Shown here: positions 1-33,764 of the stretch, one piece after another
How the letters are laid out: every line of letters begins with the position of its first letter
How positions within the stretch are numbered: position 1 is the first letter of the stretch
DNA from: Lentisphaerota bacterium
Lineage (GTDB): Bacteria; Verrucomicrobiota; Lentisphaeria; Victivallales; Victivallaceae
Direction: 5' to 3'
Assembly (NCBI GenBank): GCA_015061525.1
Contig: SUWK01000019.1
Location: 1-39,834, forward strand
Length of the DNA stretch: 39,834 nucleotides
Notes under the pieces: generated by a model
Seen by the model: the letters and a program-made list of their open reading frames with translations, nothing else
Told to the model about the DNA's origin: nothing
Databases searched by the model: none
Made by a program: the position numbers and the translations under genes

Positions 1-2
1 GA

Positions 3-767
<765 letters not shown>

Positions 768-2727: not shown

Positions 2728-2857
2728 GCTGTCAAAAAAGCGGCAATGGATGATGAAGTTTCACCGTACAGGTCAAACCACATGCTGTTTACTATCGTCC
2801 GAAACGCGACAACGGCGCGTTGAGCAGAATCGTTTTTATTTAGCGTACTTTTCTTTT

Positions 2858-3544
2858 AGCTCTATTCCCAATATAGGTTGACAACATATTGCGCACACAA
2901 GTTGTGGAGGGTGTTACTCTATTGAGTTTTTTGCAAAGCTTTTTTCAAAAGCGTCGATCAAGCCGCGACCTCGGAGCGGCGCGACATATCGTTTTTCTTT
3001 TGCGTACTTTTCTTTTTTCCGTAAAAAGAAAAAAAACGGCGGGTGTTATTCCACAGGGGTTTTGCAAAGCTTCTTTTCAAAAGCGTTTTTTGCTTTGCAT
3101 TATGGTCAATCCCGCGCCTTGCTGGCGTCGCTCGCGCAGTCACATACATAGTATGCTCCTTTGCTTGCTCCTTGCAAAACCCGGGCTTGCCGCATACTGC
3201 TGTGCAAAAAATAAATCGATCAAGCCGCGACAGCGGAGCGGCGCGACAGTTCGCTTTCTTTGCCAAGCTTTCTTTCTTGCGAAAGAAAGCGGGCTTCCCG
3301 TGACTGTTGCGGGGCATTGGGTTCTTCCATTAAGTTATTGCGCCTGCGCTCCCGGGGCGAGTGCCTTTTGGCACTCTTTCCGGTCGCTCGCGGCTTATTG
3401 CTCGTCCTCCGCTCATCCTCGCGACATTTGTCGCGTCGGCTTTGCTCGCATGTAAATGCTCGCAAAGTTCATTCGCATGCGGACTGCGCGCTCGGCGGCA
3501 ACCGCCTCGCACCCGTGCGTTGAACGTGCCACGGAGGTCATCAA
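2858..3544 (-). mobile_element. Truncated, nested copy of the 497-bp MITE-like element
   Basis: From 2858 (AGCTCTATTCCC...) the sequence matches the reverse complement of the intact element at 33260-33756, with only 2 differences in the first ~69 bases. Homology stops near 3544 (CATCAA), where the intact copy runs into its other terminal repeat, so that end is lost here and no target duplication can be found. Compared with the intact copy it carries an extra ~262 bp: a 32-bp segment (2955-2986) is repeated at 3217-3248, flanking unrelated palindromic sequence. It also lacks the GA-rich stretch found at about 33530-33586. No transposase reading frame is present. The open frames here are best explained as chance translations of the repeat. 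Confidence 0.8.
2987..3216. repeat. Insert between 32-bp direct repeats within the damaged element
   Basis: This segment is absent from the intact copy at 33 kb. It contains a CTTTTCTTTTT/AAAAAGAAAA hairpin (about 3007-3032) and a degenerate second copy (3037-3087) of a block also seen at 2906-2954: GGGTGTTA-T-C, then TTTTGCAAAGCTT, then TTTTCAAAAGCGT. It looks like a further repeat unit that inserted with, or by recombination at, the flanking repeat CGATCAAGCCGCGAC. Confidence 0.55.
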
Positions 3545-25270: not shown

Positions 25271-25295
25271 CCGGTGGTAATCAATACAAAACACA

Positions 25296-25406
25296 AAGGA
25301 GGGTTTTCAAATAAAAAATTTCACTATTTATCGCGCAGTTGCATCCCGAATGAAAGAAAATCATCACTTTTCACTAACAATCAAAAAAAGGAGGCTTCCC
25401 GGATGA
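25296..25406 (+). other. Possible vestigial leader ORF ahead of the pseudopilin
   Basis: A strong ribosome site, AAGGAGGG (25296-25303), is followed at the right distance by ATA (25311) rather than ATG. The frame is open for 31 codons and contains ATG 25350 ([11 protein letters not shown]...). It ends in a TGA that overlaps the true pseudopilin start (ATGA, 25403). It could be a decayed start of an older pseudopilin (FSLTI resembling FTLIE) or a short leader peptide. It may also be chance. Confidence 0.3.
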
Positions 25407-26380
25407 AACAACACAACTTATTTACTCTGATAGAATTACTCGTTGTCAGCTCACAACTCTGCCGTGATTTTTTCAAACGCTTTATTTGTACGGATCAGTA
25501 CGGATATGTACGGAAACATACGGAGAGTGCCGCTCACAAAAATATGCCGCATCATACTTGCAAAGCAAACACTTCATGCAGCAACGCTGCGCTTCACACG
25601 GCGGAGCATGATTTATCATCACAAAGAAGTCCGCTTTTTTTGAAAGAGAAAGGGGGCGCGGGGGAAAGGGAAAACTTTTTTTCCCGTGAAAAAAAGTTTT
25701 CCTTGTCCCCCGCACACTCATTTACCTTGATCGAATTGCTGGTGGTTATCGCCATCATTGCCATTCTTGCGGCGATATTGCTCCCGGCGTTGAACAGTGC
25801 GCGTGAGCGCGGGCGCAGTGCCAGCTGTATCAACAATATGAAGCAGTTGGGGTTGAAAAGTCAGATGTATACTGATGATAACGAAAACCGCTGGGTTCGT
25901 TGGAACTTTCCCGGGGGGAAATACTGGCACGGTTGGGGTGACTATTTTGCCGGTCCTTATCTGGGGTTCACAGAAAAAGCCAACAGTTGTTATCAACCGG
26001 GCAAAGTCACCGATTGTCCAAGTAATATTCCGGAAATGAATACCGATTATTTCGGCAGCGATCCGGTTTGGTGGGATTATGGTTTGTGTACTTTTGTCAC
26101 AAATAATTCGACTCCGTCATCAGTCAAACAGCATTCCAAGTGGATTTTGATGTTTGAGGGACAGAAATCCACCAATGCCGCGGACGGAGGATTCAATACC
26201 GCCGGCAAGGAATCCGGGGTCAAGTGGGGATTCGGCCGGGTCTGGAACCGGATCGTCCACAACAATACGACCAATTTGTTGTTCCTTGATGGTCACGTGG
26301 AGAATATAAGTTGTGTGACACATGAAGAATATGATGTTTATGAAGGCAGTCATTATTGGCTGGACACCCGGGAAAATTGA
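25403..26380 (+). CDS. Pseudopilin with two tandem prepilin leaders
   Basis: 325 residues from ATG 25403, which has a good AAAAGGAGG ribosome site 8 nt ahead. Residues 7-15 read FTLIELLVV, but the hydrophobic helix that should follow is replaced by 91 residues of Cys/His-rich sequence. A second FTLIELLVV at 107-115 then continues normally into [25 protein letters not shown] and a globular domain ending in [10 protein letters not shown]. The second leader has no in-frame start of its own nearby. At the DNA level the two FTLIELLVV copies differ in 7 of 9 codons, so this is not a fresh tandem duplication. Processing by prepilin peptidase could occur at either leader, or the gene may be impaired. 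It lies between the regulator and the glycosidase-like gene. Confidence 0.75.
25489..25524 (+). repeat. Four TACGGA motifs at exact 10-bp spacing
   Basis: TACGGA occurs at 25489, 25499, 25509 and 25519, one helical turn apart, within the segment between the two pseudopilin leaders. Confidence 0.6.
25669..25702. repeat. Palindrome with CCGT loop, in front of the second leader
   Basis: A perfect 15-bp stem (GGAAAACTTTTTTTC with GAAAAAAAGTTTTCC) around CCGT (25684-25687), 18 bp before the second FTLIELLVV. It is the same type as the palindrome at 19-58, but translated in a different frame relative to the loop. Confidence 0.75.
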
Positions 26381-33259: not shown

Positions 33260-33756
33260 GGCTCTATTCCCGATATTGGTTGATGCCCTCCGTGGTATGT
33301 TCAACGCTCGGGTGCGAGGCGGTTGCCGCCGAGCGCGCAGTCCGCATGCGAATGAACTTTGCGAGCAAAACCATGCGAGCAAAGCCGATGCGACAAATGT
33401 CGCGAGGATGAGCGGAGGACGAGCAATAAGCCGCGAGCGACCGGAAAGAGTGCCAAAGGCACTCGCCCCGGGAGCGCAGGCGCAATAACTTAATGGAAGA
33501 ACCCAATGACCCGCAACAGTCACGGGAAGGCCCTTGAGGGAGGGGAGTTTGAGGGGAGGGAAACGAAGTGTCCCGCCCCTCTCCGCTTTCTTTCGCGAGA
33601 AAGAAAGCTAGGCAAAGAAAGCGGACTGTCGCGCCGCTCCGCTGTCGCGGCTTGATCGACGCTTTTGAAAAAAGCTTTGCAAAAAAACTCAATAGAGTAA
33701 CACCCTCCACAACTTGTGTGTGCAATATGTTGTCAACCTATATTGGGAACAGAGCT
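33260..33756. mobile_element. Intact 497-bp MITE-like non-autonomous element
   Basis: The ends are imperfect inverted repeats, 20 of 24 positions identical (left GGCTCTATTCCC..., right reverse complement AGCTCTGTTCCC..., both continuing to GGTTGA). They are flanked by perfect 8-bp direct repeats ATTTATTT (33252-33259, 33757-33764), the signature of transposition. End style and 8-bp duplication recall ISL3-family insertion sequences; that assignment is an inference. There is no transposase. The inside is GC-rich and full of short hairpins, such as GCGACAAATGTCGC, GTGCCAAAGGCAC and CTTTCTTTCGCGAGAAAGAAAG, plus a GA-rich stretch. Open frames are present but look like chance translations. A damaged inverted copy lies at 2858-3544. 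Confidence 0.88.
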
Positions 33757-33764
33757 ATTTATTT
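33757..33764 (+). repeat. Target-site duplication, right copy (ATTTATTT)
   Basis: Identical to 33252-33259. Confidence 0.9.

What the first reader, a model, noticed from the sequence alone, without database searches (positions are those of the whole stretch)
25403..25780. Pseudopilin with two FTLIELLVV leaders 100 residues apart
Residues 7-15 and 107-115 are both FTLIELLVV, but their codons differ at 7 of 9 positions. The first leader stops exactly where the hydrophobic helix should begin. This fits recombination or cassette insertion at the conserved leader, bringing in a leader from another pseudopilin gene. It suggests that leader regions of the large pseudopilin family are exchanged, a possible diversification mechanism. 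A weaker third leader-like sequence ([11 protein letters not shown]) lies just upstream at 25350.
Basis: partly seen in the sequence, partly recalled or inferred. Interest (0 to 1): 0.75.

Follow-up and report, generated by a model that had tools for sequence, protein, structure and literature searches.

The report
Mobile DNA inserting at pilin leaders
A family of small mobile DNA pieces in gut Lentisphaerota bacteria inserts exactly inside the cleavage-signal codons of pilin-like genes and brings a fresh copy of that signal along, so the finished protein may stay unharmed; a phage-type integrase found at the same site is the likely source.

Summary
The two FTLIELLVV leaders are real. The first is the gene's own. 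The second arrived with a 300-bp insertion (window 25444-25743) between bases 23 and 24 of the leader codons; three syntenic congeners are empty. The insert belongs to a dispersed family: 33 of 91 leader groups examined have 2-4 leaders, and all 52 sense clusters in the fetched own-genome loci sit at a leader. Inserts keep frame (68 of 70) while their peptide evolves about neutrally. One pseudopilin in this genome is split at the same point by a 6.0-kb element with a large serine integrase; its ends match the 5' heads of A, C, D and N inserts, not directly those of B, the commonest type. Homologous integrases lie beside pseudopilins broken at this site in 19 of 30 loci fetched (own included), 11 genera of three families. 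Best reading: the prepilin leader is the attachment site of these integrases, and the repeats are non-autonomous derivatives carrying half an attachment site plus a new leader that prepilin peptidase could cut. How the small inserts move, and which leader is cut, is inferred.

The parts
25403..26380 (+). pseudopilin gene (325 aa; DUF1559/N_methyl family) carrying the insertion
   Evidence: Pfam N_methyl and SBP_bac_10/DUF1559
25421..25443 (+). native leader codons FTLIELL-GT (nt 1-23); the site that was split
   Evidence: agrees with the syntenic empty site L205 at 0.92 of 24 leader bases
25444..25743 (+). 300-bp in-frame insertion, absent from L204, L205 and L206
25444..25479 (+). insert 5' head, matching the terminal repeats of the 6-kb serine-integrase element; read as an attP half-site
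   Evidence: score 44 against the element's right end and 30 against its left, 0 of 1000 shuffles as high in either
25446..25607 (+). A-type body made of short hairpins
   Evidence: 85% identity to unit A of L033
25621..25720 (+). B1-type tail (the window's unit is an A/B1 mosaic)
   Evidence: 100 of 100 bases identical to B1 of L038
25658..25713 (.). long palindrome inside the B1 tail
   Evidence: stretch 25621-25720 folds at -52.1 kcal/mol, z -6.6; self-complement hit
25721..25743 (+). leader copy carried by the insert; the only one followed by the hydrophobic helix
25744..25840 (+). native gene resumes ([17 protein letters not shown])
   Evidence: matches L205 from this base on
1..97 (+). 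second copy: B2-type tail and its leader at the start of the window's contig, in the pseudopilin 3-767

Best explanation
SHOWN: the window gene carries a 300-bp insertion between nt 23 and 24 of its leader codons (...CTN-GT|N); the insertion has its own leader at its 3' end; three syntenic relatives are empty; inserts of the same family sit at the same point in dozens of sister genes, in frame and with no sign of strong peptide-level constraint. A 6.0-kb element with a large serine (phage-type) integrase is integrated at this same point in one sister gene, and its inverted ends match the 5' heads of insert types A, C, D and N. Homologous integrases in 11 genera lie next to pseudopilins broken at the leader. 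INFERRED: the prepilin-leader codons are the attB of these integrases with GT as crossover dinucleotide; the small inserts are non-autonomous derivatives consisting of an attP half-site, hairpin-rich filler and a captured pseudopilin leader, spread by the integrase (exchange at GT between the leader/head junction of a circular insert and a leader). INFERRED: they persist because prepilin peptidase can cut at the last leader, so the 36-198 extra residues are shed as an over-long propeptide and the mature protein is unchanged.
For: Empty sites: L205 keeps the window's 5' flank (0.80 of 70 nt) and leader (0.92) and lacks only the insert; L204 and L206 are syntenic and empty. Own gene L103 is empty and its relative L200 filled. 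Precision: 22 of 22 own leaders before B units end GT|A, while their nt 1-23 are as varied as the 41 clean leaders; 10 leaders after A units are identical over nt 7-12 and 19-23 and vary at nt 24. Frame: 68 of 70 units a multiple of 3; frame 0 open in 70 of 70, the other two in 24 and 14. Near-neutral peptide, in the 32 of 70 units of standard length: variable columns by codon position 20/27/23 (A), 13/13/13 (B1), 11/11/13 (B2); nonsynonymous fraction 0.69-0.76 against 0.76-0.77 expected. Cleavage site: residue -1 of the insert-borne last leader is A or S in 42 of 42 own genes, G/A/S in 15 of 49 clean ones (only a few independent insert types). One prepilin peptidase gene. Integrase: PF00239 + PF07508, phrog_95 E 2.6e-45; element ends inverted, 0 of 2000 shuffles; joined flanks read [16 protein letters not shown]. 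Ends match heads A, C, D, N (0-5 of 1000 shuffles against the right end); B heads match the N head (1 and 13 of 2000). Other genera: 19 of 30 integrase loci (own included) beside a leader-broken pseudopilin, 12 of 30 within 120 bp of the integrase start, 15 of 16 attR-type junctions with GT at the core; control: of 12 PF07508 loci in the genus only the own element.
Against: Small inserts have only the left half-site; their right end is a leader, not the inverted second half-site, so they are not plain deletion derivatives. Their movement would need a leader/head (attL-like) site to react with attB, and PMC3783163 (abstract and passages) states that serine integrases do not recombine other site pairings. 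B is the commonest head in this genome (27 B, 16 A, 7 other) yet does not match the integrase ends above shuffles (72-156 of 1000); it links only through N. Against the element's left end several heads are weak too (C1 48, D 14, D2 169, N 25 of 1000). None of the 24 insert-bearing congeners has an integrase homolog at 1e-10; weaker ones (E <= 1e-3) in G011, G017 and G029 are not beside leaders. B1 second leaders resemble the host's first leader in their 3' half (0.867 vs 0.812, P 0.003, uncorrected), hinting at homologous exchange. L317's two ends are not detectably inverted. 11 of 30 integrase loci show no such junction, and in L314, L328 and L330 the bases before the core still look partly leader-like. 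No tree of the integrases was built. No protein data.
Confidence: 0.68

Rival explanations
1. Homologous recombination or gene conversion between leader-coding stretches of paralogous pseudopilins spreads the segment; no dedicated enzyme.
For: About 90 paralogs share the leader and the following helix; 3' halves of B1 second leaders resemble the host's first leader (uncorrected P 0.003); mosaic A/B1 units such as the window's own; insert-bearing congeners without a close integrase homolog.
Against: The left junction shows no spread inside the leader: first leaders before B units are as varied as clean ones up to nt 23 and then switch at one base; clean leaders average only about 0.7-0.85 identity; an integrase element uses the identical point.
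Confidence: 0.2
2. RPE-like palindromic selfish repeats insert at random and only insertions at the shed propeptide survive selection.
For: Palindromic, in frame, near-neutral peptide, as described for Rickettsia palindromic elements (PMC2229807 and PMC10969869, passages).
Against: Survival alone would leave copies between genes; of 52 sense clusters in the own-genome loci none lies away from a leader, though the rest of the genome was searched only with the window segment. Exact nucleotide, one orientation, leader copy carried. One relative (L186) does hold the hairpin module alone away from a leader.
Confidence: 0.07
3. The long propeptide has a function, or insertion and loss switches pseudopilins on and off, so the inserts are a host diversification system.
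For: Frame is kept; arrays differ between relatives (L112 against L164).
Against: Changes fall about as in neutral sequence (A slightly below expectation); unit types and lengths vary; 9 of 33 congeners gave no match.
Confidence: 0.04
4. Assembly artefact of a repeat-rich metagenome bin.
For: Several contigs end inside a unit.
Against: Dozens of copies with unique flanks on both sides, the same units in bins from other samples, frame kept in 68 of 70, integrase-only element in a one-contig genome (L327).
Confidence: 0.01

Closest known systems
Large serine recombinase (phage-type serine integrase) elements
   Same: Resolvase plus Recombinase domains; element ends form an imperfect inverted repeat around a central dinucleotide; integration inside a gene; joined flanks restore the site. 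Multi-targeting serine integrases, and enrichment of competence genes among targets, are described in PMC10083194 (passages).
   Different: Here the target is the signal-cleavage codons of a large paralogous family, giving dozens of potential sites per genome, and small inserts outnumber the integrase element.
Rickettsia palindromic elements (RPE) and Wolbachia palindromic elements
   Same: Short, palindromic, translated in frame inside host genes (passages).
   Different: RPEs enter unrelated genes at assorted positions and intergenic DNA; these inserts hit one codon position of one protein family and carry a copy of the host motif.
PARCEL repeats (PMC2996958, passages) and bacterial MITEs
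   Same: Palindromic coding repeats spread through a genome.
   Different: No tandem amphipathic repeat was noted, no terminal inverted repeats found in the small inserts, no ordinary target duplication at the window locus.
Integron gene cassettes (recalled)
   Same: Arrays grow by repeated insertion at one short site regenerated at the 3' end of each cassette.
   Different: Cassettes stay in frame inside a host gene; a serine, not tyrosine, recombinase is implicated; attC features were not examined.

Membership tests
Large serine recombinase element (the 6.0-kb element at G000:C18) | Resolvase catalytic domain plus Recombinase domain | tested here: met
   PF00239 1.3e-9, PF07508 5.1e-10, phrog_95 2.6e-45
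Large serine recombinase element (the 6.0-kb element at G000:C18) | attP an imperfect inverted repeat around a core dinucleotide | tested here: met
   own element 0 of 2000 shuffles; related L327 25 of 2000; related L317 not met, 563 of 2000
Large serine recombinase element (the 6.0-kb element at G000:C18) | precise integration: joined flanks give an uninterrupted site | tested here: met
   own, L317 and L327 all translate as [16 protein letters not shown]
Large serine recombinase element (the 6.0-kb element at G000:C18) | recombination activity | not testable with these tools
   needs an in vitro or plasmid assay
Non-autonomous derivative of that element (the small inserts) | shares the element's ends | tested here: inconclusive
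   left head met for A, C, D, N against the element's right end; B not directly, only via N; right end is a leader instead of the inverted end
Rickettsia palindromic element | in-frame, translated palindromic insert | tested here: met
   translation itself inferred from frame conservation
Rickettsia palindromic element | found in assorted genes and intergenic regions | tested here: not met
   0 of 52 sense clusters in own-genome loci away from a leader; loci were chosen
MITE | terminal inverted repeats | tested here: not met
   blastn self-comparison of one example each of A, B1, B2, long B, C0, C1 and D gives no end-to-end inverted match
MITE | target-site duplication | tested here: inconclusive
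   native leader not duplicated at the window locus; B1 units hint at shared 3' halves
Integron cassette | attC recombined by a tyrosine integrase IntI | not tested
   three tyrosine recombinases exist but were not typed

The most novel reading that the evidence does not exclude
A group of serine integrases spanning several families of Lentisphaerota has evolved to use the codons of a protein-processing signal, the prepilin leader, as its attachment site, and has spawned non-autonomous passengers that re-create the signal at their 3' end. Host proteins then discard the passenger at the peptide level, a protein-stage counterpart of an intron, which lets copies pile up in a third of a bacterium's pilin-like genes at little cost.
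Probability: 0.45. Interest if true: 0.87.

Novelty: new variant of a known kind. Interest (0 to 1): 0.78.

Why it matters
It would be a concrete case of mobile DNA made harmless by the host's own protein maturation: the target is chosen so that the insert is cut off. It offers natural attachment-site sets (dozens of similar sites per genome) and a set of integrases with a defined target, useful for genome-engineering work and for studying how integrases come to tolerate degenerate sites. It also asks how long a propeptide prepilin peptidase can accept, and it explains why assemblies of these genomes break at pseudopilins and why doubled leaders appear.

Tried and rejected
Y1/RAYT transposase as mover: one PF01797 protein, but its locus L110 shows no leader or matching hairpin flanks; rejected. 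Translational bypassing: not needed, because the inserts are open in frame. Other PF07508 recombinases of the genus as movers: 12 loci, only the own element beside a leader. Integrase in viral contigs: no match to its patterns, and no match to one exact head pattern; in phage records the 8 rows shown have 23-25% identity. A solved relative of the first 446 residues: none at 0.01; NCBIfam: none. I found no paper on this; the searches were made; only listings, abstracts and passages were seen (passages), and subscription journals are missing from the library. Limits: copy numbers are lower bounds, since one search scored 40 of 109 candidates; outside the fetched loci the genome was searched only with the window segment, not with C, D or N units; relatives were found with a query that includes the leader, so weak hits may be leader only and leader context there is biased;'s 371 relatives the best 80 were kept; one search gave loci for 30 of its 48 listed matches; the leader patterns miss divergent leaders (for example the first leader of L036); the 23 synonymous to 2 nonsynonymous leader codons are biased, because leaders were picked by motif; one search used 32 of 70 units. 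In one search my brackets for the second helix covered the wrong columns, so only its helix 1 is used. No structure was predicted.

Full report
What was checked. The window is contig C41 of a 2.83-Mb bin (122 contigs, 89.6% complete). Relatives carrying the same segment are Lentisphaerae/Lentisphaeria bins, by their record titles, several from sheep colon, roe deer gut or yak cecum. The gene at 25403-26380 encodes a DUF1559-type pseudopilin. Both FTLIELLVV stretches exist, 100 residues apart, with 7 of 9 codons different.

A repeat family. The segment has 71 matches in this genome. I fetched these places and the other N_methyl sites and found 91 distinct leader groups: 58 with one leader, 28 with two, 4 with three, 1 with four; some of the 58 are cut by contig ends. 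Unit types, named here: A (231-bp period), B1 (180), B2 (183), a longer B, C, D and a cut N, alone or in arrays. In these loci and the window, sense matches to the units merge into 52 clusters: 32 have a leader on both sides, 18 a leader on one side and a contig end on the other, 2 a leader on one side with a looser fit on the other (L030; L109, near a contig end). 35 further clusters are antisense hits of the palindrome to itself within units.

Empty sites. L205 (G001) shares the window's upstream gene, 5' flank, native leader and downstream gene and lacks the 300 bp; the window aligns to it up to base 25446 and again from 25718, both alignments reaching the single leader of L205. L204 (G020) and L206 (G004) are syntenic and empty as well, with different DNA just before the leader. 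Own gene L103 is empty while its relative L200 is filled, again with shared 5' flank. L038 and L025 are filled with empty relatives L208/L211 and L209, but there the upstream DNA differs. So the native leader is the first one and the second came with the insert.

Exact junction. Before B units, 22 of 22 leaders end in GT|A, yet nt 1-23 vary as in clean genes (mean pairwise identity 0.80/0.71/0.76/0.81 against 0.83/0.71/0.79/0.85 in 41 clean leaders). After A units, 10 leaders agree completely over nt 7-12 and 19-23 (0.92 over 13-18), and nt 24 varies. Both junctions therefore sit between nt 23 and 24. Against this tidy picture, the 3' half of the leader after B1 resembles the host's own first leader more than shuffles do (0.867 vs 0.812, P 0.003, 15 genes, uncorrected, 24 tests run), while A and B2 show no clear effect.

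Selection. Of 70 complete units (39 own, 31 from relatives) 68 are a multiple of three and none of these holds a stop; frame 0 is open in 70, frames 1 and 2 in 24 and 14. L044 is the own exception, and L023, cut by a contig end, shares its variant. Within the 16 A, 8 B1 and 8 B2 units of standard length, changes fall evenly on the three codon positions and 0.69, 0.76 and 0.74 are nonsynonymous against 0.76-0.77 expected. The frame matters; the peptide seems hardly to. Residue -1 of insert-borne last leaders is A or S in 42 of 42 genes, against G, A or S in 15 of 49 clean ones, though the 42 represent only a few insert types. One prepilin peptidase gene was found. I infer that the last leader is the one cut.

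The integrase. Reading on past the last leader of L057 led to a 587-aa serine recombinase starting 79 bp away. In the 14-kb stretch L288 the pseudopilin resumes 6.0 kb later; between lie the integrase, a small resolvase, a nuclease homologue and a phage family of unknown function in two pieces. The element's two ends are inverted copies, GGTCACCTCATATCTCTACTGCCATTGATTTTTTCAA and GGTAACATCACATCTCTGCTGTGATTTTTTCAA, placed around GT; joining the flanks gives [16 protein letters not shown]. The right end matches the heads of A, C, D and N units (0-5 of 1000 shuffles); the left end matches A clearly and C1, D and N weakly or not. B heads, the commonest (27 of 50 classified), match neither end above shuffles but do match the N head (1 and 13 of 2000).

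Other genera. Homologs at E 1e-10 or better occur in 38 of 388 genomes and 23 of 185 genera, own included. Of the 30 loci fetched, 19 have a pseudopilin broken at the leader within the flanks held, 12 of them within 120 bp of the integrase start; 15 of 16 junctions on the helix side keep GT at the core, although a gene that has lost its leader should no longer be selected for it. The 19 fall in 11 genera of three families (handles). L327, in a one-contig genome, is an integrase-only element of 1.9 kb with both ends. As a contrast, of 12 PF07508 loci in the genus only the own element is beside a leader. This is the strongest evidence that leader codons are the attB of these integrases. Whether the leader-targeting ones form one clade was not tested. 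A result against an integrase role in spreading the small inserts: none of the 24 congeners with unit matches has a homolog at that threshold; bins are incomplete.

How the small inserts arose and move. They have a half-site head on the left and a leader on the right. D units end in a hairpin plus leader that looks like the upstream region of an ordinary pseudopilin, so capture of a leader region behind a half-site is a natural origin. A circular insert would then carry a leader/head junction; exchange at GT with another leader gives exactly the observed product. Known serine integrases are reported not to recombine such pairings (PMC3783163, abstract and passages), so this step is the weakest. 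Homologous exchange at leaders is the main alternative and may contribute.

Compared with the known. Serine integrases that use many targets, and competence genes as frequent targets, are described (PMC10083194, passages). In-frame palindromic elements are described in Rickettsia, Wolbachia and others (PMC2229807, PMC10969869, PMC2996958, passages). None of the passages read describes an element aimed at a processing signal that it rebuilds. I call it a new variant of a known kind.

Noticed in passing
own loci L041, L045, L049, L050, L075, L076, L086, L087, L089, L094, L095, L105 and others, 34 to 11 nt before the leader: Native leaders often carry a hairpin with at least 8 of 10 pairs at or near -34 to -11: 17 of 88 own and 24 of 191 in all, against 5 of 9550 mononucleotide shuffles. 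In 17 of the 24, which were picked for pairing, stems covary (98% paired, 8 of 10 pairs changed on both sides) and the right arm also pairs with the leader's own first bases. Origin and role unknown.
   Followed up: partly
window 2857-3544 and 33280-33757: Two long intergenic repeats, 82-91% alike in inverted order, full of chance open frames.
   Followed up: no
L204, L205, L206 and window 25274-26380: Leader/5' region and mature domain have different histories: the window protein is 90% like L204 in its mature part but its 5' flank matches L205, whose mature part is only 54% alike.
   Followed up: partly
L287 (G017:C38), minus strand: Leader, insert and second leader are fused to a large enzyme-like protein (837-aa open stretch) rather than to an ordinary pseudopilin.
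   Followed up: no
L186, 217-324: The B-type hairpin module stands alone, away from any leader, in a relative: it may be an older intergenic palindrome captured by the inserts.
   Followed up: no
L044 and L023: Two genes share a length variant in the B1 hairpin that puts the downstream leader out of frame.
   Followed up: no
L110 (G000:C110): Single Y1 transposase-like gene, with a Fic-like open frame nearby by eye, not linked to leaders.
   Followed up: partly
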